DNA from: Prevotella sp.
GTDB lineage: Bacteria; Bacteroidota; Bacteroidia; Bacteroidales; Bacteroidaceae
DNA: 64,000 nucleotides
Direction: 5' to 3'
Assembly (NCBI GenBank): GCA_017619275.1
Contig: JAFZSR010000063.1
Span: 1-64,000, forward strand
Shown here: one piece after another, positions 1-53,614 of the stretch
How the letters are laid out: each line of letters opens with the position of its first letter
Position numbering within the stretch: the stretch's first letter is position 1
The notes under the pieces: model-generated
Databases searched by the model: none
The model's input: the letters and a program-made list of their open reading frames with translations, nothing else
Told to the model about the DNA's origin: nothing
Program-made: the position numbers and the translations under genes

Positions 1-459
1 AACGAGCTCCAGCATTTCCTCATCGTCGACCATGTCGCACTTGTTCAGGAACACAACCAGACGGGGAACGTTTACCTGGCGGGCGAGCAGAACGTGCTCA
101 CGAGTCTGAGGCATAGGACCATCGGTAGCGGCCACCACGAGGATAGCGCCATCCATCTGGGCAGCACCAGTAACCATGTTCTTCACATAGTCGGCGTGTC
201 CCGGGCAGTCCACGTGTGCATAGTGACGCTTCTCGGTCTCATACTCCACGTGAGCGGTGTTGATGGTGATACCACGCTCCTTCTCCTCAGGGGCGTTGTC
301 GATAGCGTCGAAGGACTTCACCTTGTCAGCGTTACCGGCCACACGCTTCGAAAGAACCAGCGTGATGGCAGCGGTCAAAGTTGTCTTACCATGGTCAACG
401 TGACCAATAGTGCCAATGTTGACGTGCGGTTTGGTGCGCACAAATTGCTCTTTTGCCAT
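1..459 (-). CDS. tuf: Elongation factor Tu, N-terminal part (runs off the window)
   Basis: EF-Tu is the GTPase that delivers aminoacyl-tRNA to the ribosome. The first 153 codons are present and the rest lies beyond base 1. The protein begins [20 protein letters not shown] and shows the P-loop GHVDHGKT near residues 19-26, the switch region RGITI, the G3 motif DCPGH and the G4 motif NKCD. The ATG is at 457-459, 67 bases after the last tRNA of the upstream cluster. No promoter is obvious in that gap, so it is probably cotranscribed with the four tRNAs from the promoter at 1071-1100. The family is about 395 residues, so about 60% is missing only because of the window edge. Confidence 0.98.
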
Positions 460-526
460 TGTTTGTTGTTTTTATTAATTTTGTTGATAATCAAACTGTT
501 TTTGCTCCTCCAATCATTTCTCAGAG

Positions 527-598
<72 letters not shown>

Positions 599-610
599 GT
601 TTGTTTATAG

Positions 611-683
611 AGCGGAAAACGGGGCTCAAACCCGCGACCCCCAGCTTGGAAGGCTAGTGCTCTATCAACTGAGCTATTTCCGC
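611..683 (-). tRNA. tRNA-Gly (anticodon TCC)
   Basis: A 73-base cloverleaf has acceptor stem GCGGAAA with TTTCCGC and discriminator T. The anticodon loop CTTCCAA gives TCC. The T-arm carries GTTTGAG. CCA is not encoded. It lies 12 bases upstream of tRNA-Thr(GGT) in the same transcript. Confidence 0.96.
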
Positions 684-768
684 AAGTACGGTATGTTTGG
701 CTTCGTCTCGGCATAAGCGAGCTTCTGCTCTCGACTTGCACAAAATTCCGCAAAAACACTCTTGAGAG

Positions 769-851
769 TGGGAGGTGATGGATTCGAACCACCGAAGTCG
801 AAAGACAACAGATTTACAGTCTGCCCCATTTGACCGCTCTGGAAACCTCCC
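769..851 (-). tRNA. tRNA-Tyr (anticodon GTA)
   Basis: An 83-base class II tRNA with a long variable arm. The acceptor stem GGGAGGT pairs with ACCTCCC and is followed by discriminator A. The anticodon loop CTGTAAA gives GTA, and the T-loop is GTTCGAATC. CCA is not encoded. Confidence 0.96.
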
Positions 852-944
852 AAATTTTTGCTTGCGCAGGGCACTCCCGCCCTGGCATCTTCCTTTCTTG
901 AGCCTTAAGAGGATTGGCTTTGCCTTTCCTCTGAGTCTCTTTCG

Positions 945-1018
945 AGCCTCTTGTCGGATTCGAACCAACGACCCCGAGATTACAAATCACGTGCTCTGGC
1001 CAACTGAGCTAAAGAGGC
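945..1018 (-). tRNA. tRNA-Thr (anticodon TGT)
   Basis: A 74-base cloverleaf with acceptor stem GCCTCTT, AAGAGGC and discriminator T. The anticodon loop TTTGTAA gives TGT. CCA is not encoded. It is the first gene of the tRNA-tuf cluster and lies about 50 bases downstream of the promoter at 1071-1100. Confidence 0.96.
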
Positions 1019-1070
1019 TTTTTAAGCAGCCGCTCTCGTTTCAGATTTATGACCTGTCGGAAAACGGCTG

Positions 1071-1100
1071 CAAAGTTACGACAATTTTTTTAATCTCCAA
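1071..1100 (-). promoter_or_regulatory. Promoter of the tRNA-tuf cluster
   Basis: On the minus strand TTG (1098-1100) is followed after 19 bases by TAACTTTG (1071-1078). This matches the Bacteroidota consensus TTG-N19-21-TAnnTTTG. It lies between the end of hpf and the first tRNA, so tRNAs and tuf can be transcribed independently of the rpsU-xerC-hpf genes. Confidence 0.8.
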
Positions 1101-1118
1101 AATATTTCGGGATTTTTT

Positions 1119-1421
1119 TTAGTAATTCCTCGATTTTTCTTTGATTTTCTGTAGTTGAACCCTCAGAGCGTCGACGCAAAGGTCGATTCCTTCCTCAAAA
1201 GTGTCGTTCACTTTCTCCACGTGAACAGGAGCCTGGCCGGGTATGGTCACCGTGATGCTCGTCTCCTTGTTCAGTGCCGTGGCGGGCTTAACCACTTTCA
1301 GCTGCACCTCTACTTTCTGTATATCTTCGTATGACTTTTCTAACTTGGCGACCTTCTTCTCGATGAACGCCTCTAACTTCTCGGTAGCGTCGAAGTGTAT
1401 CGACTGAATTTTAATTTCCAT
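1119..1421 (-). CDS. hpf: Ribosome hibernation promoting factor (HPF/RaiA family)
   Basis: A 100-residue protein of the short HPF type. This family binds the 30S decoding region and inactivates or dimerises ribosomes in slow growth. It begins MEIKIQSIHFDATEKLEAFI and shows the family pattern of a beta strand, an amphipathic helix with lysines (EKKVAKLEKSYEDIQKVEV), then the strand SITVTIPGQAPVHVEK and a final helix DTFEEGIDLCVDALRVQL. There is no C-terminal extension, so it is not the long dimerising form. The gene lies 38 bases after the xerC-like gene, in a run with rpsU and before the tuf promoter. This is a translation-related neighbourhood. Confidence 0.93.
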   Translation of the reverse strand: MEIKIQSIHFDATEKLEAFIEKKVAKLEKSYEDIQKVEVQLKVVKPATALNKETSITVTIPGQAPVHVEKVNDTFEEGIDLCVDALRVQLQKIKEKSRNY

Positions 1422-1459
1422 AGTTAATCTCCTATATTTTTAAAATTAAACTATAAAGT

Positions 1460-2350
1460 TCAGCCCCTTGGGTGGGCTTCTTTGTAAACTCGTTTCAGTT
1501 GCTCAAAGGTGGTGTGCGTGTAGATCTCGGTTGTCTGCAGGCTCTCGTGTCCCAACAGCTGTCTCACGCTTTCCAGTCCGGCACCGTGGTTGAGCATGGC
1601 GGTGGCGAATGAGTGTCTCAACACGTGTGGCGACCGTTTCTTCATGGTGGTCACCTTTGTCAGGTTCTCCCTGACAATGACATACACCTGGCTGCCAGTC
1701 ATGCGCCTCCCTTTGTTGTCGACAAACAAAGCATCCTCGTGTGAAGGAATCTCCTTGTCGCGCACCTCGATATACCTGTGCAACTGCTCGGCCAATTCTT
1801 TTCCGAATGGCACGATGCGCTGTTTGTTCCGCTTGCCAGTTACTTTCAACTGTCCTGTGGCGAAGTCCACATCCACATCGTTCAGTCCCGTGAGCTCTGC
1901 TCGTCTCAGTCCGGCCTCGTATAATAATAATAATATGGTACGCGCACGTACATTATTAATATCATCGCCCCACTCTTCACGGTCGAGCAAGTTGTCCATC
2001 TCGTTCTCTCGCACAAACTGCGGCAGGGGCTTTTTTTTCTTCGGCCCTATGATGCTGTGTGCGGGATCGCGTTCGACCAGCTTTCTGGCCAGCGCAAACC
2101 GATAGAACGATTTGAGCGCCGAGAGGTCGGTGTTCACTGTCGAGGCCATGTTGCCCCGGTCTATCAGGCTTTCCATCCATCCCCGGATGATGTCGGCATC
2201 CACCGATGCCCAGCTGAGCCCAGCGTCCAGGGACTGAAAATATGCCTCAAAGTCGCGAAGACTAGTCTCGTATCGCCCGACGGTCTGCTCACTGCGGTTC
2301 CGTTCATGGCTCAAATACGCGAGAAAAAGGTCAATCACGCTTTTCGGCAA
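1460..2350 (-). CDS. xerC: Tyrosine recombinase, XerC/XerD type
   Basis: A 296-residue tyrosine recombinase of the size expected for Xer proteins, which resolve chromosome dimers. The N-terminal SAM-like DNA-binding domain (FLAYLSHERNRSEQTVGRYETS) is followed by the catalytic domain with Arg in AGLRRAELTGL, Lys in VTGKRNKQRIV, HVLRHSF, LLGHESLQTT and the nucleophile Tyr in TEIYTHTT. All catalytic residues appear intact. The start is a TTG at 2348-2350, because no ATG lies near the expected N-terminus. It lies between rpsU and hpf on the same strand, with no phage or integron genes around it, so a housekeeping role is more likely than a mobile-element integrase. XerC versus XerD cannot be settled from sequence alone. 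Confidence 0.9.
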   Translation of the reverse strand: MPKSVIDLFLAYLSHERNRSEQTVGRYETSLRDFEAYFQSLDAGLSWASVDADIIRGWMESLIDRGNMASTVNTDLSALKSFYRFALARKLVERDPAHSIIGPKKKKPLPQFVRENEMDNLLDREEWGDDINNVRARTILLLLYEAGLRRAELTGLNDVDVDFATGQLKVTGKRNKQRIVPFGKELAEQLHRYIEVRDKEIPSHEDALFVDNKGRRMTGSQVYVIVRENLTKVTTMKKRSPHVLRHSFATAMLNHGAGLESVRQLLGHESLQTTEIYTHTTFEQLKRVYKEAHPRG

Positions 2351-2398
2351 CGAATTTACGGAAATTTTTCGAAACTACCAAATTTTCCGAGAACTTTT

Positions 2399-2593
2399 TT
2401 AATTTTCCTCGGCTGTACGCAGCTGCTGCACGTAGATGGCGTGTTCCATCTTCAGGCGCTTCAGTACAGAGGGCTTGTTGAATTGCTGACGGCGGCGCAG
2501 TTCTTTTACAACGCCAGTCTTCTCAAACTTTCTCTTAAACTTCTTGAGGGCCTTCTCGATGTTCTCGCCTTCTTTTACAGGTACAATGATCAT
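2399..2593 (-). CDS. rpsU: 30S ribosomal protein S21
   Basis: A 64-residue basic protein beginning MIIVPVKEGENIEKALKKFK with the typical S21 body KRKFEKTGVVKELRRRQQF and a C-terminus rich in Arg and Lys. The ATG at 2591-2593 is chosen over an upstream in-frame extension because S21 starts at MIIV. A well-formed promoter (2671-2701) lies 78 bases upstream. It is the first gene of rpsU-xerC-hpf. Confidence 0.95.
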   Translation of the reverse strand: MIIVPVKEGENIEKALKKFKRKFEKTGVVKELRRRQQFNKPSVLKRLKMEHAIYVQQLRTAEEN

Positions 2594-2670
2594 ACTGTTT
2601 TTTGACTTTAATTGTTTAATAGTTATACATTTCTGCTTCGTCCGCGCATGGCGCGCACGATTTGCGGCTG

Positions 2671-2701
2671 CAAAGGTACAACTATTTTGCGAAACTGCCA
2701 A
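2671..2701 (-). promoter_or_regulatory. Promoter of rpsU
   Basis: On the minus strand TTG (2699-2701), a 20-base spacer, then TACCTTTG (2671-2678). This is an exact match to the Bacteroidota vegetative promoter, about 80 bases upstream of the rpsU ATG. Confidence 0.82.
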
Positions 2702-2790
2702 GTTTTTCTACGTTTTTTTAAAGAAAGTGGGTAAAATGGGGTGAGAAAGAGGGGGTAAAAAGGCTGTTCCGAGCAAGGGAAATGAGCTAC

Positions 2791-2863
2791 AAAAAAATCT
2801 CGTACGAGATTTTTTCAAAAGTCGTTGACTTTTTTCAAAAAAGCGTTACCAAAATTTTGAAAG
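2791..2863 (+). repeat. Three-module palindromic intergenic repeat, copy A
   Basis: This is one of five copies of a roughly 70-base A/T-rich element. Its modules in order are the palindrome ATCTCGTACGAGAT bounded by A and T runs, a second imperfect palindrome AAAGTCGTTGACTTTTTT, and a tail of GCGTTACC then AAAATTTTGAAAG. This copy sits in the 600-base gap between the rpsU promoter and the alcohol dehydrogenase gene. Other copies are near 18.3, 30.2, 49.8 and 58.4 kb. Confidence 0.85.
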
Positions 2864-2955
2864 TCGGCAACAGGTTTTTGGAGACCCTGTGCGAGGGCCA
2901 CTGCGAGGTCATAAAAATTCTAAATAATTTGTGTAAAAGCATCGGGAATACACAG

Positions 2956-3138
2956 TTTTTTCATAACTTTGCGCTCTACGAGCGCTAAATTACTCTGTCT
3001 CGGCAAAAAAAGGAACAAGTTCCTTTGTTTTGCTCTCGTTTTTTCGTAACTTTGCCGTCTGCGACGGCGAAATCACTCCGTCTCGGCAAAAAAAGGAACT
3101 AAGTTCCTTTGTTTTGCTCTCGACTTTTCGTGATTTTG
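2956..3138 (+). repeat. Tandem 83/84-base repeat carrying promoter-like boxes
   Basis: Two direct copies (2956-3038 and 3039-3122) plus the start of a third (to 3138). Each unit holds TAACTTTG, a short GC-rich inverted repeat (GCGCTCTACGAGCGC or GCCGTCTGCGACGGC), CTGTCTCGGC or CCGTCTCGGC, the palindrome AAAGGAAC/GTTCCTTT and TTTTGCTCTCG. The end of one unit supplies TTG and the next supplies TAACTTTG with a 19-base spacer (3025-3054), a good promoter directed at the alcohol dehydrogenase gene. The next pair (3109-3138) has the weaker TGATTTTG. The rest of the 2705-3198 gap holds only this and repeat copy A. Confidence 0.8.
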
Positions 3139-3198
3139 GCAGCTAAACGTATGAAAAGAAAGATTGATTCATCATTATAACACATAAACGACAAAAAC

Positions 3199-4383
3199 AT
3201 GAAAGACTTTAATTACTACGCACCGACGGAAGTGGTGTTTGGAGAAAACTCCGAGGAGCAGGTGGCTTCTCTTGTGAAGAAATATGGTGGCACGAAGGTG
3301 CTGGTGCACTACGGTGGCAAGAGCGCAGTGAAATCGGGGCTGCTCGATAAGATTTGCGGGCTGTTGAAAGAGGGCGGTGTAGAGTTCGTCACCCTCGGCG
3401 GCGTAGTGCCCAACCCGCGATTGTCGCTGGCTCAGGAGGGCATCGCCCTCTGTCGCCGCGAGGGTGTCGACTTCATCCTAGCCGTGGGCGGTGGCAGCGT
3501 CATCGACTCGGCAAAGTGCATCGCCTATGGTGTGCCCTACGATGGCGACGTGTGGGACTTCTATCTCGGCAAGGGCACGCCCACCACAATGCTGCCCGTG
3601 GCTTGTGTGCTCACCATCCCCGCCGCCGGCAGTGAGATGAGCGAGGCGAGTGTCATCACCAACGAGGACGGCGACGTGAAGCTGGGCTACAGCAACAACC
3701 TCTCGCGCCCCAAGTTCGCCATCATGAACCCCCGCCGCACGTTCACTCTGCCTCCTTACCAGACGGCCGCCGGCGTCACCGACATGATGATGCACACGAT
3801 GGAGCGCTACTTCACCAAAGACGACGATATGGACTTCACGACCGATGTGGCCGAGGCCATGCTGCGCAACATCAAGCATGCGGTCTTTGCCGTGCTGAAG
3901 AATCCTGAGGACTACCGCTATCGTGCCCAGATTATGTGGGGCGGCAGCCTGATGCACAACGGACTGACGGGCTGCGGTGTTGCCGACGACTGGGCCACAC
4001 ACCAGTTGGAGCACGAGCTGAGCGGCATGTTCGACGTGACCCACGGTGCCGGTCTCGCCGCCATCTGGCCCAGCTGGGCTCGCTATGTGATGCACGAGAA
4101 CCTGAGTCGCTTTGTGCGATTCGCCGTCAACGTGATGGACGTGCCCAACGATTTCACCGACCCCGAAGGCACGGCCCTGCGCGGCATCGAGGCCATGGAG
4201 CGCTTCTACCATGCCATCGGCATGCCCATCAATATCCGCGAACTCATAGGCCGCGACATCATCGACGACGAGATACGTGAGATGACACGCAAGTGTAGCC
4301 GCGACTACCAGCACACCTGCGGATGTCTGAAGGTGCTGCACGCCGAAGATATGGAGGCCATCTACCAAATGGCAAAGGGGTGA
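3199..4383 (+). CDS. Iron-containing alcohol dehydrogenase (YqhD/butanol dehydrogenase type)
   Basis: A 394-residue group III metal-dependent alcohol dehydrogenase that should reduce aldehydes with NAD(P)H in the cytoplasm. The N-terminal Rossmann-like domain has the GGGSVIDSAK nucleotide motif near residues 97-106. The metal ligands fall at Asp195 and His199 (GVTDMMMHTMERYF), His268 (WATHQLEHELSG) and His282 (VTHGAGLA). These are one residue off the known E. coli YqhD ligands (194, 198, 267, 281), so the alignment is convincing. Length matches the family. The leader carries tandem promoter-like repeats. The next gene starts 45 bases downstream and may be cotranscribed. The substrate cannot be read from sequence. 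Confidence 0.93.
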   Translation: MKDFNYYAPTEVVFGENSEEQVASLVKKYGGTKVLVHYGGKSAVKSGLLDKICGLLKEGGVEFVTLGGVVPNPRLSLAQEGIALCRREGVDFILAVGGGSVIDSAKCIAYGVPYDGDVWDFYLGKGTPTTMLPVACVLTIPAAGSEMSEASVITNEDGDVKLGYSNNLSRPKFAIMNPRRTFTLPPYQTAAGVTDMMMHTMERYFTKDDDMDFTTDVAEAMLRNIKHAVFAVLKNPEDYRYRAQIMWGGSLMHNGLTGCGVADDWATHQLEHELSGMFDVTHGAGLAAIWPSWARYVMHENLSRFVRFAVNVMDVPNDFTDPEGTALRGIEAMERFYHAIGMPINIRELIGRDIIDDEIREMTRKCSRDYQHTCGCLKVLHAEDMEAIYQMAKG

Positions 4384-10687: not shown

Positions 10688-13600
10688 TTATTGCCTTCGG
10701 ACAATCTTTTTCCTCACCAAGCCATCGGGTGTGCGGCGCACAATGATGGCTGGCTGATGGCCGTTTAGCTGCTTGATGCTGCGTCCTTGCAGGTCGAAAT
10801 AACGTTGAGCGTTGAGCGTTGAACGTTCAACGTCGCTGATGCCCGTAGGCTTGGCCATGGGGTCGGCAGTCTCTTGCACGGTGAAGCCCAGCGTGAGCGT
10901 CGACGCATGGTTGAACACGTCCCAGGCTCGTAGTTGCAGCTCATGGAGGCCATCGCTGAGGTGTGGCAGACGGTATTCGAGCGTGCCGCTGCGGAAGTCG
11001 CCGAAATCGAAGGCGAAATAGCTGTTCAGCCAGTAGGTCTGCTCCATGCGCCCGTCAATGCACAGCTCAATCTGATGGCCTATGCCGGCGTCGCTCACGT
11101 TGATGCCGTCGTCGTCGGTGATTTCAGCGTGCAGTAGTGGCTCGGCACCCACCAAGCCGCCTTCGGCAAAGTCGGGATATTCCAGCCAAGCCTTGATGAC
11201 AGGGCCTGAGCCTTCGGCGGCATATGCGTCGGCGCTCACTACGGCGAAGGCGTCCGAAAGGCCATGCGCCACGATGGAGTGGTCGGTGCTGGTGGCGTGC
11301 ACCAGCATCAGTCCGCCATTATCGCCATAGTCGGCATCGCGGGGCACGGCGAAGGTGAAGGCGAAGCTGCCGTTGCTCACGCTGTCGCTTCCTGTGAAGA
11401 GCGTCGAGGGGCGGTCGCGATAGGTCAGCGGGGCCTTGGGCTCTTCGTCGGATTGTTGTGGATTCATGCGGCACACGATGGTCTGCTCGGCTCCCTTCAC
11501 CGTGAGCGAGGCCATGCCGTTGAAGTCGGGATGCCCTTCAATATGCCCTTTCACCGTGGCGACGCTCCCGGCTGGCAGGGCTACGAAGGCTCCGTCGGCC
11601 ACGCTCTCGCCATTGATGCTGTCGATGACGGCACGGGCAGTGGGCAGGGGCAGACGCAGAGCGGGGTCGCCCAGCAGGGCAAAATGCAGTCTGTTGATGC
11701 CGGCTTGCAGCTGCGTGCGCTGTCCCAGCACCTGTTCGTTCTTGGCCAAGCGCACAGCCTCGCCGATGGTGCGTGGCTCTCCGTTGTTGGTTTCAAGCAC
11801 ATGGGTGGTGAAAGCCTTGTTCATCGCACGGTTGTGAATGGCATAGACGGTGCGGGTGGTGCCCAGGAAGGCGATGGCTCCGCCGGCAGGGTTGAAAAGA
11901 GCCTGCTCGCCAATAGTCTCCTGACTGTTCGATTCGAAGGGGGCTACATCGCACGAGGCGGTGAACCACACGGGCAGACGCAGCGAGGTGGGAGCCTTGA
12001 AATCGCTGAGGTCAATCACGTTCTCGTGCGACAGCATGTAGGTAGAGCCATGACCGCTATAGTTCATCAGCAATGCACCTTCCAACATTTGCTGGCGAAT
12101 CAGCCGACCCACGTCGGGGTAGGCGTGGCCGAGGGCCGACTCGGTGCGCTCGTAGGCATCCCAATAAATCTTCTTGACGTTATAGGCGGGCCAATTCTCG
12201 TTGATGATGCCAGCCACAATCTCGGCATCGTTCATGTGCATGTTGGCATTGCCATCGTCGCCCATCATGCAGATGATGTTCTGCCAAGCTCCGTATTGTT
12301 CGTTCAGGCGGTAGCCGTAGGCTTTGTCGACAGCCGTCTTCGCCTCCTCAACAGTGCGGGCGGGGATGCGACCCACAGCCACATCAAGCTTGTCGTTTTT
12401 GACGATGTCTGCACCCTCGCCATTGTCGAGCATGCCAAAGAAGTCGTCGCTGACATAGCAGGCGGTCTCGCTCATCGAGTTATCGCTCTCGTAGCAGAGC
12501 AGGAAATCGTTGGGGCTTAGATTGCTGAACTCAGCCTGGCACATGCGGTTGTCGTAGATGGCATCGCCGAAGAGCAGCAGAAAGCGGGGCTTGTCGGCTT
12601 CGCTTTCGGCACGGTCGTAGAGCATCTTCAGATAGCGGCGATAGGCATTGGCGTCGGGGGTGCCGCTGCTAAACTCGTTGTAGAGCTCGTCGGCCTTGAC
12701 CACCCGCACGCGCAGATGGTCGAAGTCGCGGTGCATCTGTGCCAGCCGCTCGGCTTGTTGCATCAGATGAGCCGAAGATGCAACGATGATAATCATGTCG
12801 GCGGCCTCGTCGGCATGGCGGTCTTGGTTGGCTATGGCGCCCATCACCGTGGGATGTGGGAATGTCGTGGTGCTGAGCAAGGGCATAGGGCGCGACTGCT
12901 CCGACGTGAGTTCAATGCGGTCGAGCCGCATGTCGCGCCCGGAGAGCTGCTGGATGGTAATCGTCACACTGTCGGACAGAACGACGGGCAGCTGGAAAGT
13001 CCACTCGTCAACGGCAGCCCGCATATACTGGTCCATGTATTGCTTGCGCCCGGCTCCCTTCGTGGTGTTGGCATCGATAAGGATGTGGCCCAGCTCCAAG
13101 TCGCCCAAGGCCACGGTGGCGTCGCAGTAATTGTTGTACGACATCACCACCGTGACGGTGGCGGCGGCCCCCCTGACGGCGGGCAGCTTGTAGCTGTGCG
13201 CCACCTCGGGGCCGAAGAGTTTGCTGTCGTAGAGGTTGCGTCCGCCAGGATACCACGAGAAATCGTCGACCTCGTAAAGGCTATGGTAGATATTTGGCAG
13301 TGCTTTCCAGGCGGCAGACATCTGCGCGCTGTCGACGAGGAGCGCGTCTTCGTCTGTAGTGTCGGTAAGGAAATAGCACCCTGCATTGGCATAAGGGTTG
13401 CGGGTGCGGGCGGTGGAAGTGGATTTCTCCCAGTTGACGGGACCATAGGCGAGGAACAGGCGTTGGCCGCCAATATGACACAACGGCACCTGCGGCAGGT
13501 CGTCGGTGGCAGTGGGATAGGCTGTCTCCAGCTTTTCGGGCTGCAAGGCTCCCCCGTAGCCATAGATTTTCACTTGCTGCGGATTGCTGAAGCCGGCGGC

Positions 13601-21157: not shown

Positions 21158-21574
21158 ATGGAAATCATCATTCCCTCGCTCGATGGCCTCCACGAGGCCG
21201 CACGGCAATTCATCACGATGATGCAGGGCCACACCGTCTTCGCCTTCTACGGAAAGATGGGGGCTGGCAAGACCACTTTTATTAAGGCACTCTGCCAGGA
21301 ACTGGGCGTGCAGGACGTCATTACCTCGCCCACCTTCGCCATCGTGAACGAATATGGCACTGCCGACGACGATACCATTTACCACTTCGATTTCTATCGC
21401 ATTAAGCGCATAGAGGAGGTCTACGACTTGGGCTATGAGGATTACTTCTACAGCGGGGCACTCTGCTTTATCGAGTGGCCCGAACTGATTGAGGACTTGT
21501 TGCCTGAGGACGCTGTGCGGGTGGACATCGGCGAACAGCCCGATGGTTCCCGGGTTATTAACTGTAGACTTTAA
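21158..21574 (+). CDS. tsaE: tRNA threonylcarbamoyladenosine biosynthesis ATPase TsaE
   Basis: A 138-residue P-loop ATPase needed with TsaB/C/D for t6A37 modification of ANN-decoding tRNAs. The Walker A motif [15 protein letters not shown] lies near residues 31-45. [12 protein letters not shown], the Walker B-like FDFYRI and [14 protein letters not shown] are all typical. A -7 box TACCTTTG (21127-21134) lies 23 bases upstream of the ATG, and no convincing TTG is seen at -33. The stop codon falls inside a 7-base repeat array that separates it from the convergent GH30 gene. Confidence 0.94.
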
Positions 21575-21590
21575 ACTTTAGACTTTAGAC
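21566..21590. repeat. AGACTTT heptamer array at the tsaE stop codon
   Basis: Units AGACTTT, AAACTTT, AGACTTT and AGAC follow each other without gap. The tsaE stop TAA is formed within the second unit. The array fills the 19-base space between the convergent tsaE and GH30 genes. Confidence 0.7.
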
Positions 21591-49958: not shown

Positions 49959-50669
49959 TTAGTGCTTCTGCCCTTTCTGTCCGTAGTAGGCGTTGGGGCC
50001 GTGCTTGCGCATGTAGTGCTTCTCGATGAGGAGCGGGTTCATGGTGAGGTTGGGGTTGACCGAGAAGGCCACAAAGGCCATCTTGGCGCACTGCTCCATC
50101 ACCTTGGCGTTGTAGACGGCGTTGTCGGGACTGGTGCCCCACGAGAAGGGGCCGTGGTTCTTCACCAGCACGGCGGGGGTGTGGTCGGGGTTGATCTTGC
50201 GGATGTTCAGGATCTCGTCGACGATGACGTTGCCCGTCTCCAGCTCATACTGTCCCTTCACCTCGGCCTCGGTCATGTCGCGCGTGCAGGGGATGTCCTT
50301 GTAGAAGTAGTCGGCGTGCGTGGTGCCGATGTTGGGGATGTCGCGGCCGGCCTGTGCGAAGGCGGTGGCATAGGTGCTGTGGGTGTGCACCACGCCCTGG
50401 ATGTTGGGGAACGCCTTATATAATATAAGATGTGTAGGCGTGTCGCTGCTGGGGTTGAGGTCGCCTTCAACCACCTTGCCGCTTTCGAGGTCGACGACCA
50501 CCATATCGCTGGCTTTCATTTCGTCGTAGCTCACGCCGCTGGGCTTGATGACGACGAGGCCTTTCTCACGGTCGATGCCGGAGACGTTGCCCCAGGTGAA
50601 GATGACCAGTCCCTGCTTCACCAGGTCGAGGTTGGCCTTGAATACTTTTTGTTTGAGTTCTTCGAGCAT
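49959..50669 (-). CDS. araD: L-ribulose-5-phosphate 4-epimerase
   Basis: A 236-residue class II aldolase-fold enzyme that converts L-ribulose-5-phosphate to D-xylulose-5-phosphate. It begins [42 protein letters not shown] binds the phosphate; the zinc ligands lie in [15 protein letters not shown] and a later [12 protein letters not shown] region, and [11 protein letters not shown] is conserved in AraD. It is the last gene of an arabinose-type operon with an AraR-like regulator, an SGLT transporter and an aldose epimerase. araA and araB are not in the window. Confidence 0.95.
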
Positions 50670-50676
50670 GATATTT

Positions 50677-50730
50677 GTAGGGGTTTGGTAGGTTTAGTAG
50701 GTTTAGTAGGTTAGGTAGGTTTTGTAGGGG
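50677..50730. repeat. 9-base tandem array between araR-like gene and araD
   Basis: Four consecutive 9-base units (GTAGGTTTA, GTAGGTTTA, GTAGGTTAG, GTAGGTTTT; 50688-50723) are flanked on both sides by GTAGGGG. They fill the 62-base spacer between the two genes. Confidence 0.75.
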
Positions 50731-50731
50731 A

Positions 50732-51448
50732 TTATAATTTGAAAGTGGGGTCCTCCTTGTAGACGCTGTCGTTGAATCGGTAGAGGGCGGCGCCGCGCTT
50801 CGACGAAAGCTTGTCGATGAACTCGGTCTTCTCGATGAAGTCCATCTCCTTGATGCGCTTGCGGAAATTGCGCTTGTCGATTTCGCTGCCGCTGACGGCC
50901 TCGTAGAGGCGCTGCAGCTGGGTGAGCGTGAACAGGTTGGGCAGCAGGCGGAAGCCGATGGGCTCGGTGCGCATCTTTAGCTGCATACGTCGCCAAGCCT
51001 GGCGAACCATTTCGTTGTGGTCGGAGTAGAGTGGGGGTAGCTGGTTGATGTCCACCCATTCCAATCCATGTTCCTGACGTAGCCGCTCGTCGTAGTCGTG
51101 TACGTTGATGAGTGCATAGTAGGCGATGGAGACCACGCGCTCGCCGGGGTCGCGGTCAGGGGCGCCGAAGGCTCCCACCTGGCGCATGAAGAGGTTTTTC
51201 AGGCCTGTCAGCTCTTGCAACGTGCGTGCGGCACATTCGTTGATGCCCTCATTGGGGGCGACGAAGCCTCCGTAGAGGCTCCAGTCGCCACGTCCAGGAT
51301 CCATCTGGCGTCGGCCGATGAGCACCTTCAGCTTGCCTTGGTCGAAGCCAAAGATAATCACGTCGACCGACAGCCAGACTTTATCGTGTTCACGATAATA
51401 CGTTGAACGTTGAACGTTGAGCGTTGAACGACAATTGACTTCTGTCAT
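50732..51448 (-). CDS. AraR-like Nudix-domain transcriptional regulator
   Basis: A 238-residue protein. An N-terminal Nudix domain (about 27-150: GGFVAPNEGINECAARTLQELTGL in the Nudix-box position) is followed by a winged-helix C-terminus (LFTLTQLQRLYEAVSGSEIDKRNFRKRIKEM). In Bacteroides thetaiotaomicron a Nudix-type regulator of this layout, AraR, controls arabinose genes. The arabinose-type neighbours here support the same role. The Nudix box is degenerate, as in the regulatory members. The first 18 residues (MTEVNCRSTLNVQRSTYY) are read partly through a heptamer array, and the ATG overlaps the four-helix-bundle stop. The native N-terminus was probably replaced. Confidence 0.85.
   Translation of the reverse strand: MTEVNCRSTLNVQRSTYYREHDKVWLSVDVIIFGFDQGKLKVLIGRRQMDPGRGDWSLYGGFVAPNEGINECAARTLQELTGLKNLFMRQVGAFGAPDRDPGERVVSIAYYALINVHDYDERLRQEHGLEWVDINQLPPLYSDHNEMVRQAWRRMQLKMRTEPIGFRLLPNLFTLTQLQRLYEAVSGSEIDKRNFRKRIKEMDFIEKTEFIDKLSSKRGAALYRFNDSVYKEDPTFKL
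51402..51429. repeat. Left heptamer array (GTTGAAC units)
   Basis: Four units on the plus strand: GTTGAAC, GTTGAAC, GTTGAGC, GTTGAAC. The inner edge reads TTGAACGACAAT (51425-51436). It codes RSTLNVQRST of the AraR-like protein on the minus strand. Confidence 0.85.
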
Positions 51449-51819
51449 TGTTTTTTTTCTTTCATTCGTTTAATGATCTTGATGAGGATAGCACGAATCT
51501 TTTCGTTGTCATCGTATATAGACTCGAAACTGTCTTTTGACAAATAATCCGACTCATGAAGTAGTTCCAGCCAAGTTTTCGTCTCGTCAGCTTCTTTTAG
51601 CGCTATTGACAATTTACTGATAAAGTCATTCGTACTTTGTGCATCAACACTCTCGGTGATGTTTGCACAAATGCTTGTGCCACTTCTCAGTACTTGGTCG
51701 GTAAGCACATATACAGTTCTATTGTGTTGATAAGACTTGAAAAGATATTCAGACATCTTTATAATCCTAAGCGCAAACGCCTTGGATAACCTTAATATCT
51801 GGTTGTCATCTCCCATCAT
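51445..51819 (-). CDS. Four-helix bundle protein (S23/IVP-like family)
   Basis: A 124-residue, mostly helical protein with the family pattern ILRLSKAFALRIIKMSEYLFKS, then QVLRSGTSICANITESVDAQS, then DFISKLSIALKEADETKTWLELLHES. This family includes proteins encoded in 23S rRNA intervening sequences and resembles the Avd accessory protein of diversity-generating retroelements. No biochemical role is established for the stand-alone members. It has two adjacent ATGs (51817-51819 used). Its stop overlaps the AraR-like start (ATGA). Codon use is more A/T-rich than in the flanking arabinose genes, which suggests separate origin. No reverse transcriptase or rRNA is nearby. Confidence 0.85.
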   Translation of the reverse strand: MMGDDNQILRLSKAFALRIIKMSEYLFKSYQHNRTVYVLTDQVLRSGTSICANITESVDAQSTNDFISKLSIALKEADETKTWLELLHESDYLSKDSFESIYDDNEKIRAILIKIIKRMKEKKQ

Positions 51820-51831
51820 CTATCTATTGTC

Positions 51832-51897
51832 GTTCAATGTTCAACGTTCAATGTTCAACGTTCAATGTTCAACGTTCAACGTTCAACGTTCAACGTT
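51832..51897. repeat. Right heptamer array (GTTCAAC/GTTCAAT units)
   Basis: Nine uninterrupted 7-base units on the plus strand, alternating GTTCAAT and GTTCAAC three times and then three more GTTCAAC, plus a final GTT. The SGLT transporter stop codon is formed at the outer edge (TTA at 51896-51898). Confidence 0.9.
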
Positions 51898-53614
51898 AGA
51901 AGAAGTACCAGTAGAAGCAGCCGCAGAGGATGATGACACCAAGTGTTGCCACGATGTCCCAAACGCCCCAGCTCTGGCGAATTTGCTTCCAATACTCTGG
52001 CGTGAAGGTGATGGCCTCCACCTGAGCCTTCGAGGGAGCAGGAGTGAAGAAGCTCACTACCACCATCAGCAGAACGATGAACACCAGCAGCCAACACTCG
52101 AACACCAGCCAGTTGGTCTGCCAGAACCATGCGGTGGCATCCCAGAAGGCACCGTCCATGACGGCCTTGCCCGTGTCGGTAAAGATGTTGGTAAGCAGGC
52201 GCAGCATACCGATGACGAAGCCACCGATGAGACCCCATTCACCTGCCTTTGGCGTAATCTTCTTCGAGAAGATACCCAGCGTGAACACGGCCACCATGGC
52301 GGGAGCCAGCAGCGACTGGATGCCCTGCAGATAGCTGTAGAGCGTATCCATCGACATCATCACGGGCATCCAAGCCAGACCCAGCAGCACGACAACGACG
52401 GTGGCTGTACGGCCTACGAACACGTAGTGAGCCTCGCTCTTACCTTTCTTCATGGGCTTGTAGAAGTCCTCGGTGAACAGGGTGGCGCAGCTGTTGAAGA
52501 AGGCAGCCAACGAAGCCACGAGGGCGCAGATGAAGCCGATGGTGACGATACCCTTCACACCCATGGGCAGCACCTGCTTCACCATGCCGGCAAAGGCGGC
52601 GTCGGTGTTGCTCAGGTCGAACTGTCCGTTCTGGGCCAGGGCAGCGGCAATCATACCGGGGATAAGGAACATGAACACGGGGAGCAGCTTGAAGTAACCG
52701 GCGGCGATGGTACCACGGCGGGCACGCTTCATCACTTCCACATTGCTCTCACCCTTCTGCTGACCAAGCACACGCTGAACGATGTGCTGGTCGGTACACC
52801 AGTACCAGAAGCCGATGATCGAGGCACCGATGAACACCACGAAGCCGGGATACTCGCTGTAGAGCGGGTCGCCCTCTTCCCAGTGGAACATGTGGGTGGT
52901 GCCGTAGCCGTCGTGCAGCTGTCCGCAGTAGTCCATCATGGCTGTCCAGCCTTCAGAGATGCTGCCGCCACCGAGGGCTGCCAGTCCGAGGAAGAGCACG
53001 AGGAACGAGCCGATGATGAGGATAGGAGTCTGAATGGCCGAGAGCGTCATCACGCCCTTCATGCCACCGAAGACCGTAAACACGGCGGTGATGGCGATGA
53101 GGCCGATGGCACCCCACCAGAAGGGAAGGCCCAGCAGATACTCGAAGAAGATACCACCCGTGAAAGCGGTTACAGAGACTTTCGTCAGCACATAGGCCAC
53201 CAGCGTGATGATGCTGAGCCACGAGCCGGTGGCATTGGTGTAGCGGAACTTCAGGAAGTCGGGCATGGTGATAATCTTGCCCAGCTTGTTGTTCAGCAGC
53301 TGATAGAAGGGAACGAAGAGCCAGCCGAGGATGAGGATCATCCAGCCCTGCATCTCCCAGTGGGCCATACCCACGCCGTCCTTGGCACCAGTACCGGCCA
53401 AGCCCACGAGGTGCTCGGAACCGATGTTGGCGGCAAAGATAGCCGCACCAATAATGTACCAAGGCTCGCCCTTACCGAACAGGTAGTCCTGTGAGTCGGC
53501 GCCAGCCATTTTCTTCTTGTCCTTCTGAATGGAATGATACACTGCCCATACCACTCCTAAAACTCCGACGGCCAGGATGAGCCAGTCGAGCCATTGAAAT
53601 TCGTGTGAAGTCAT
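51896..53614 (-). CDS. Sodium/sugar cotransporter, SGLT type
   Basis: A 572-residue membrane protein of the SSS family, SGLT branch, with about 14 hydrophobic segments. YIIGAAIFAANIGSEHLVGLAGTGAK is the first sodium-site helix and ALVASLAAFFNSCATLFTEDFY is the TM8-like sodium-site block. GFWYWCTDQHIVQRVLGQQ is a hallmark of SGLT-type sugar transporters. It is placed between an aldose 1-epimerase and arabinose genes, so L-arabinose or a related sugar is the likely substrate. It ends at the heptamer array. Confidence 0.92.
   Translation of the reverse strand: MTSHEFQWLDWLILAVGVLGVVWAVYHSIQKDKKKMAGADSQDYLFGKGEPWYIIGAAIFAANIGSEHLVGLAGTGAKDGVGMAHWEMQGWMILILGWLFVPFYQLLNNKLGKIITMPDFLKFRYTNATGSWLSIITLVAYVLTKVSVTAFTGGIFFEYLLGLPFWWGAIGLIAITAVFTVFGGMKGVMTLSAIQTPILIIGSFLVLFLGLAALGGGSISEGWTAMMDYCGQLHDGYGTTHMFHWEEGDPLYSEYPGFVVFIGASIIGFWYWCTDQHIVQRVLGQQKGESNVEVMKRARRGTIAAGYFKLLPVFMFLIPGMIAAALAQNGQFDLSNTDAAFAGMVKQVLPMGVKGIVTIGFICALVASLAAFFNSCATLFTEDFYKPMKKGKSEAHYVFVGRTATVVVVLLGLAWMPVMMSMDTLYSYLQGIQSLLAPAMVAVFTLGIFSKKITPKAGEWGLIGGFVIGMLRLLTNIFTDTGKAVMDGAFWDATAWFWQTNWLVFECWLLVFIVLLMVVVSFFTPAPSKAQVEAITFTPEYWKQIRQSWGVWDIVATLGVIILCGCFYWYFF

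What the first reader, a model, noticed from the sequence alone, without database searches (positions are those of the whole stretch)
51402..51897. Four-helix-bundle gene framed by inverted heptanucleotide arrays: a candidate new mobile cassette
Seen: plus-strand GTTGAAC x4 on the left, GTTCAA(C/T) x9 on the right, a perfect 12-base inverted repeat (TTGAACGACAAT / ATTGTCGTTCAA) at the inner edges, and one small gene of the four-helix-bundle (S23/IVP) family between. The unit lies inside an otherwise compact arabinose operon, and the gene is more A/T-rich than its neighbours. Known: this family occurs in rRNA intervening sequences and resembles Avd of diversity-generating retroelements, but free-standing members have no known role. 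Inference: the protein and arrays form one transposable or domesticated unit with no transposase.
Basis: partly seen in the sequence, partly recalled or inferred. Interest (0 to 1): 0.88.

Follow-up and report, generated by a model that had tools for sequence, protein, structure and literature searches.

The report
Gene cassette with inverted heptamer arms
A small bacterial gene of long-unknown role sits between two mirror-image stretches of a repeated 7-letter DNA word, and the same layout turned up around most of the relatives examined in other bacteria, including one inside a ribosomal RNA gene, which suggests one overlooked family of insertion-like gene cassettes.

Summary
The S23/IVP four-helix-bundle gene at 51445-51819 (minus) lies between RTTGAAC x4 and GTTCAAY x9. 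S23 genes elsewhere share the plan with other heptamers, in Bacteroidota, Cyanobacteria and Treponema; one sits inside an Azospirillum 23S rRNA (a classical IVS).

Among 46 dereplicated loci, 32 exceed the 99th percentile of 471 neighbouring genes for matched inverted flanks. In 30 fresh loci, 44 of 60 flanks show the 7/8-nt period (19 of 180 control windows), but only 9 loci pass the strict inverted-arm test. In a 400-kb contig the only inverted array pair 200-900 nt apart held its only full-length S23 gene.

Arm sequence follows protein kinship across sites. The protein is under purifying selection. Three junctions are occupied in one or two genomes and empty in others: 17, 19 and 1.

Most likely: an IVS-like selfish cassette in operon junctions, closed at RNA level by a stem. 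Mobility and mechanism are inferred. In the three GTTCAAC cases the host start codon lies between gene and right arm, so simple arm-to-arm transposition is not shown.

The parts
51402..51429 (+). Left heptamer arm, RTTGAAC x4; read on the minus strand it is GTTCAAC and lies within the N-terminal codons of the Nudix regulator
51424..51435 (+). Inner edge of the left arm, TTGAACGACAAT, perfect inverted repeat with 51826-51837
51445..51819 (-). S23/IVP four-helix-bundle gene, 124 aa; its stop overlaps the ATG of the Nudix gene (ATGA)
   Evidence: 2rld_A E 7.4e-26
51826..51837 (+). Inner edge of the right arm, ATTGTCGTTCAA
51832..51894 (+). Right heptamer arm, GTTCAAY x9; it ends beside the stop codon of the symporter gene
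50732..51448 (-). Nudix/winged-helix regulator downstream in the operon; N-terminus MTEVNCRSTLNVQRSTYY is partly encoded by the arm
51896..53614 (-). Sodium/solute symporter upstream in the operon
49959..50669 (-). AraD, L-ribulose-5-phosphate 4-epimerase, context only

Best explanation
This is one member of a widespread class of IVS-like cassettes: one S23/IVP four-helix-bundle gene enclosed by inverted arrays of a 7-nt (sometimes 8-nt) word, lying in junctions between operon genes. Shown: the association, its period, its polarity (upstream arm mostly purine-rich), matched arms within a locus, arms that follow protein kinship across sites, purifying selection on the protein, and presence or absence at fixed junctions. 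The same anatomy is shown for one 23S rRNA intervening sequence. Inferred: in the transcript the arms pair into a long stem around the gene; the protein, a pentamer in solved relatives (recalled, and the title of a reference seen), binds this stem or its DNA form and helps the cassette persist and spread, selfishly, by a route that tolerates ending up at or inside a downstream start. Also inferred: arrays without the gene are left-overs, partial copies or landing sites of such cassettes.
For: Matched inverted flanks: 46 dereplicated loci, median score 19.0 against 7.5 for mismatched pairs; 32 of 46 above the 99th percentile (14) of 471 neighbouring genes. The top three scorers among those neighbours are themselves S23-like by sequence, two distinct genes. 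Period: flanks with at least 18/21 self-match, left 25 of 46, right 21 of 46, controls 6 of 272, shuffles 0 of 92. Fresh set: 29 of 30 loci on at least one side, 15 on both, that is 44 of 60 flanks, against 19 of 180 control windows. Scan of a 400-kb contig for paired arrays. Plasmid loci: 12 of 18 read (of 39 records) above score 14, with 200-nt flanks. 23S IVS arms score 23.5, lag 7 sole best in both arms, best of 2000 shuffles 11. Arms track protein across sites, duplicates removed: 30 of 38 pairs with at least 0.65 protein similarity share arms, against 26 of 2215 below 0.45 (the 38 pairs rest on few lineages). dN/dS 0.024-0.09 in the 9 of 12 pairs measurable. Empty junctions: ssf-nudix 17 relatives, map-tsaD 19, smpB-glycosidase 1. 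Low G+C of the gene. Stem z-score -7.0.
Against: No transposase, recombinase or reverse transcriptase lies in the cassette, no target duplication was recognised, and no movement was seen. In nudix, tsaD and the glycosidase-like gene of G033 the right arm lies within the downstream coding sequence, so host DNA is enclosed. Conserved positions (atpA-atpG, 36 loci; serC-serA, 17 loci) look vertically inherited. Arms co-vary within one site only weakly (serC-serA P 0.011; atpA-atpG P 0.48). Only 9 of 30 fresh loci pass the strict inverted-arm score; 14 of 46 loci did not exceed the control threshold; 6 of 18 plasmid loci did not pass, two of them with a misplaced ORF. Only one rRNA IVS was examined. 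The fresh loci are the best-scoring PF05635 matches, not a random draw.
Confidence: 0.62

Rival explanations
1. Landing-site model: heptamer arrays are host repeats that arise by slippage or another process, and S23 genes of any origin settle between or next to them by short homology, so arms belong to the host and not to the element.
For: GTTCAAC arrays are dispersed in this genome, 193 14-mers, mostly without S23. The sister G023 has a two-unit array (second unit imperfect) and no gene at the same ssf-nudix junction. Host start codons lie inside the arms in three cases. The four genomes in which I saw GTTCAAC-armed S23 are array-rich: ranks 1, 2, 4 and 5 of 83 genus genomes counted.
Against: Arms follow the protein from site to site. 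In the same genome the GGAGTTA word has only 6 exact 14-mer matches, 4 of them in the arms of one S23 gene. The one inverted pair with a long interior in a 400-kb contig holds an S23 gene.
Confidence: 0.2
2. Host-gene model: S23 proteins are resident regulators of the operons that hold them, and the arms are an RNA processing or attenuation device; the unit is domesticated or never was mobile.
For: Strong purifying selection, both neighbours on the same strand in 39 of 49 loci scored, 5 more unclear, fixed positions in atpA-atpG and serC-serA, stop/start overlap with the Nudix gene.
Against: Neighbours are different operons in different lineages; the same operon lacks the gene in 17 and 19 relatives; low G+C; some copies oppose their neighbours, such as cas2-[S23]-cas1 in Nostoc and Anabaena.
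Confidence: 0.15
3. Chance or composition artefact: A/T-rich intergenic DNA makes weak repeats everywhere.
For: Period-7/8 arrays occur elsewhere too: 52 in 400 kb.
Against: Controls in the same loci, mismatched pairs and shuffles do not reproduce it.
Confidence: 0.02

Closest known systems
23S rRNA intervening sequences (IVS) with an S23 ORF
   Same: Same protein family; ORF enclosed by complementary ends; the one IVS examined (Azospirillum lipoferum plasmid) has inverted heptamer arms with the same polarity
   Different: The window's copy lies in a protein-coding operon junction; cutting by RNase III was not tested here
Heptanucleotide tandem repeats of Bacteria (LSSR, cyanobacterial STRR, TAACTGA repeats of Beggiatoaceae; the STRR label is recalled)
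   Same: Seven-base units, intergenic, scattered taxa; most cyanobacterial S23 genes read have such arrays as arms
   Different: What I read of PMC4679880 and PMC6344855 proposes no link to S23 genes; here arrays are paired, inverted and tied to that gene
REP sequences and their RAYT proteins; MITEs
   Same: Dispersed repeats, some as palindromic pairs, together with one gene framed by inverted copies (comparison recalled)
   Different: No HUH transposase; the word differs between copies in one genome
Avd of diversity-generating retroelements
   Same: Four-helix bundle; homology of Avd to PF05635 suggested in PMC10053308 (passage read)
   Different: No reverse transcriptase, template or variable repeat was searched for here

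Membership tests
S23/IVP four-helix-bundle protein (PF05635, TIGR02436) | Profile match above curated cut-off | tested here: met
   91.5 bits against 33.8; 102.3 against 24
S23/IVP four-helix-bundle protein (PF05635, TIGR02436) | Four-helix fold, pentamer | not testable with these tools
   Structure prediction switched off; sequence match to solved 2rld_A, five chains in the entry
23S rRNA intervening sequence | Located within a 23S rRNA gene | tested here: not met
   The window's copy lies between symporter and Nudix genes, no rRNA match in the window; met for L213 only
23S rRNA intervening sequence | Complementary ends that close a stem | tested here: met
   Arms 90-97% complementary, fold z-score -7.0
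23S rRNA intervening sequence | Excision by RNase III | not testable with these tools
   Needs a cleavage assay
Insertion sequence / DNA transposon | Encodes a transposase | tested here: not met
   The only ORF of at least 80 aa lying wholly between the arms is the S23 gene
Insertion sequence / DNA transposon | Target-site duplication at a filled site against empty sites | tested here: inconclusive
   Empty sites read; no duplication recognised, junctions rewritten by arrays
RAYT/REP element | Y1/HUH transposase beside REP palindromes | tested here: not met
   The protein between the arms matches PF05635 only in Pfam
Diversity-generating retroelement | Reverse transcriptase with template and variable repeats | not tested
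   No such search was run
Heptanucleotide tandem repeats | Tandem units of 7 nt | tested here: met
   Tandem Repeats Finder period 7 on both sides

The most novel reading that the evidence does not exclude
S23/IVP cassettes, rRNA intervening sequences included, are one ancient family of minimal mobile elements whose ends are self-renewing heptamer arrays, like telomeres at both ends of a tiny element. They spread through a stem-closed intermediate bound by the four-helix-bundle pentamer, with a polymerase borrowed from the host. Many of the heptamer tandem repeats that are so common in bacterial intergenic DNA, cyanobacterial STRRs among them, are the solo ends, scars or deleted copies of these elements.
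Probability: 0.2. Interest if true: 0.95.

Novelty: new variant of a known kind. Interest (0 to 1): 0.85.

Why it matters
Two open questions meet here. A survey of 7006 prokaryotic genomes called tandem heptamers the most abundant intergenic repeats of a wide range of species and saw no clear clue to their function (PMC6344855, passage read). The functionality and origin of rRNA intervening sequences are said to remain unclear (PMC4990558, passages read). Joining the two gives a direct test: do S23 proteins bind heptamer arms, and do cassettes move? It could also explain why this family is named in a figure legend on CRISPR-linked genes (PMC10910872, one passage): insertion into operon junctions, as in cas2-[S23]-cas1.

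Tried and rejected
A single-motif search suggested that only 1 of 5 S23 genes of the genome had arrays; this was a false negative, because the words differ. The idea that arms at one site co-vary strongly between species was tested: weak at serC-serA (P 0.011), absent at atpA-atpG (P 0.48). A strict rule that upstream arms hold stops in all frames was not borne out: 22 of 52 left arms, 11 of 52 right arms. Simple insertion of an arm-to-arm segment does not fit the three GTTCAAC cases. Gene-less, short-interior inverted pairs as deletion derivatives: seven with the polarity of the cassette among 53 array regions read (L222, L225, L230, L246, L251, L252, L260) and one of the other polarity (L250); suggestive only. 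Literature: in the listings (titles and starts of abstracts) I saw no paper that links S23 genes to heptamer arrays. The library holds open-licence PubMed Central papers only, so a subscription paper could exist.

Names not from a call: atpA-atpG, serC-serA, map, tsaD, smpB and 'glycosidase-like' were recognised by me from the sequences, with no profile search. Rows dropped before counts: one search used 119 of 132 parsed loci (the rest had an ORF outside 90-200 aa or a short flank); one search left 5 of 54 loci unclear for neighbour strand, and its pair list held duplicates (one cassette under two locus ids), so repeats it with duplicates removed; its 38 close pairs rest mainly on L179 and L193 against the serC-serA group, two Nostoc pairs and window against G033. 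In one search the high-scoring neighbours were called S23-like by reading their sequence. In one search the motif was not found in 12 of 21 relatives tried, so letters were read for 9; the count of 17 empty junctions is from tblastn. One search examined 22 of 30 loci 22 of 28. The contig was chosen for length, knowing that it held one S23 match; pairs more than 900 nt apart were not sought. The list was cut, that was not.

Full report
What is there. The window lies in a 3.59-Mb assembly; the closest named relatives of its S23 protein come from records labelled Prevotellaceae. Between a sodium/solute symporter gene and a Nudix/winged-helix regulator gene lies a 124-aa S23/IVP gene (51445-51819, minus), G+C 37% against 58-59% for its neighbours. 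On the plus strand RTTGAAC x4 stands on the left and GTTCAAY x9 on the right, with a 12-base perfect inverted repeat at the inner edges. Folded as RNA, the cassette closes with a long terminal stem, z-score -7.0, 0 of 100 shuffles as good.

Relatives with the same arms. Protein searches found S23 genes with the same GTTGAAC/GTTCAAC arms at three junctions: symporter-nudix (window; RUG403, seen as L099 and L168), smpB-glycosidase-like (RUG11071/G033, L098 and L167) and map-tsaD (G175, L100 and L169). More distant relatives have other words: ATTGAAC/CATTGAC at serC-serA in the window's genus, GAGTTCA-like words at atpA-atpG in Flavobacteriia, GGTGAAA, GGACAAT, TTAACGG and others. The five S23 genes of the window's own genome that pass the family cut-off each have an array pair, with different words (scores 21.5-51). 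Gene names such as serC or map are my reading of the sequences.

Statistics. For 46 loci with less than 60% protein similarity, the matched inverted score of the two 150-nt flanks has median 19.0; mismatched pairs of the same flanks have 7.5, and 471 other genes in the same loci have 8.0 with a 99th percentile of 14. Of the 46 S23 loci, 32 exceed that percentile and 14 do not. The three highest scorers among the 'other' genes proved to be S23-like too, two distinct genes. The best lag is 7, less often 8 or 14; flanks with strong self-match are 25 of 46 (left) and 21 of 46 (right), against 6 of 272 control windows and 0 of 92 shuffles. The upstream arm is mostly purine-rich: 28 of 33 arms, 42 of 52.

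Independent tests. Thirty loci from a phylum-wide profile search (208 of 296 Bacteroidota genomes have a match at E <= 1e-12), the best-scoring ones at no more than one per genome, had not been looked at before. In 29 of 30 at least one flank has lag 7 or 8 as sole best lag among 4-13, in 15 both have, so 44 of 60 flanks against 19 of 180 control windows. The strict inverted score is passed by 9 of 30, against 1 of 65 neighbouring genes and 1.8% of 870 mismatched pairs, so arms are often worn. In a 400-kb contig, chosen for its length and known to hold one S23 match, there were 52 arrays and 9 inverted pairs within 900 nt; only one pair had an interior above 200 nt, and it held the only full-length S23 gene that my profile found there. 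Two longer proteins with a weak S23 match lay outside such pairs; one of them has 8-nt arrays on both sides and an inverted flank score of 18. In the 64-kb window the only inverted pair is the one reported.

Other phyla and the rRNA link. Of 39 plasmid records with a match, 18 were read: with 200-nt flanks 12 exceed score 14 (five Nostoc, and one each of Dolichospermum, Euhalothece, Planktothrix, Gloeocapsa, Leptolyngbya, Treponema and Bernardetia), and 6 do not (L201, L206, L207, L208, L210, L213), of which L201 and L213 had a misplaced ORF. L213, Azospirillum lipoferum AZO_p2, holds its S23 ORF inside a 23S rRNA gene (Rfam LSU match across 190-3204). Measured at the true ends, its stem arms score 23.5 (best of 2000 shuffles 11), and lag 7 is the sole best lag in both arms. 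A classical intervening sequence thus has the same anatomy; this is a single case.

Arms travel with the protein. Among pairs at different sites, duplicates removed, 30 of 38 pairs with at least 0.65 protein similarity share arm sequence, 59 of 168 at 0.55-0.65, 32 of 411 at 0.45-0.55, and 26 of 2215 below 0.45. The 38 close pairs rest on few lineages. The four genomes in which I saw GTTCAAC-armed S23 hold ranks 1, 2, 4 and 5 for that repeat among 83 genus genomes counted; others with many copies (G064 54, G083 31, G166 27) were not checked for armed S23 beyond the loci listed. In contrast, the GGAGTTA word of another S23 gene gives only 6 exact 14-mer matches in the genome, 4 of them in its own arms.

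Selection and presence/absence. dN/dS is 0.024-0.09 in the 9 of 12 pairs that can be measured; two pairs were saturated and one had no synonymous change. Seventeen relatives have symporter and Nudix matches 7-127 nt apart with no S23 match; one of them, G023, has a two-unit array there. Nineteen of 21 relatives' loci examined have map next to tsaD without S23, and two have another gene upstream. For smpB-glycosidase one relative, G007, is adjacent and empty; in the others examined no smpB match was near.

What does not fit a simple element. In nudix, tsaD and the glycosidase-like gene the right arm lies in the downstream coding sequence, read in frame (MTEVNCRSTLNVQRSTYY, MEEKRSTFNVQRST, SSFNVQRSTFNV), with what looks like the host start codon, and once a whole signal peptide, between S23 gene and right arm. 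Either arms and gene arrive in more than one step, or arrays are renewed or copied in place. At serC-serA and atpA-atpG the right arm lies before the downstream start.

How it most likely works. The anatomy says: one protein, two complementary arms of a short word, junctions of operons, no recombinase. The best-supported reading is a selfish IVS-like cassette. The transcript is closed by the stem; the S23 protein probably binds that stem or its DNA form; the cassette persists by sitting where it does little harm. The heptamer period, the self-matching arms and the dispersed arrays ask for a process that renews arrays; which one is not known. Rivals are the landing-site model and the host-gene model. 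The atpA-atpG and serC-serA copies show that a cassette can stay at one place for long.

Known work. Passages read: PMC6344855 (tandem heptamers most abundant in intergenic regions, no clear clue to function); PMC4990558 (IVS of Coxiella called selfish, 28-bp stem, RNase III, functionality and origin unclear); PMC10053308 (homology of Avd and PF05635 suggested); PMC10910872 (S23/IVP named in a figure legend on CRISPR-linked genes). Of PMC4679880 I read abstract, outline, passages and introduction (TAACTGA heptamers in Beggiatoaceae, Cyanobacteria and Bacteroidetes, no mechanism evident; the terms S23, four helix and intervening do not occur). In the listings of the searches made I saw no paper linking S23 genes with heptamer arrays.

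Noticed in passing
L247, L256, L257, L258 (array near the middle of each): In the window's genome GTTCAAC arrays stand in open frames just before stretches that read like YDLQGR, which recall type 9 secretion C-termini (recalled label); the array would encode FNVQRST linkers.
   Followed up: partly
L250 152-179 and 449-476: A GTTCAAC array lies just outside, and a GTTGAAC array inside, the RNase P RNA gene of this genome (Rfam RNaseP_bact_a 187-630 minus).
   Followed up: partly
L275 4371-5132; L006-L009: Longer proteins (about 220-260 aa) with a weak S23 domain, one with a topoisomerase-type zinc ribbon; some have 8- or 9-nt repeats beside them, seen by eye for L006-L009.
   Followed up: partly
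window 50682-50728; L099 5121-5475: The window has a GGTTTAGTA array at the nudix-araD junction; RUG403 has a second S23-like gene with CGAATTC-type arms there.
   Followed up: partly
L205, L206, L201, L202, L207: Plasmid S23 matches lie inside defence operons: cas2-S23-cas1, hsdS-S23-hsdR, helicase-S23-methylase region.
   Followed up: no
L099 and L168, S23 gene: The RUG403/G330 copy at ssf-nudix seems frameshifted near its 3' end while its arms are intact.
   Followed up: no
window 10804-10824 and 21561-21590: Further heptamer arrays in the window: GTTGAGC/GTTGAAC x3 and ACTTTAG x4, with no S23 profile hit beside them.
   Followed up: no
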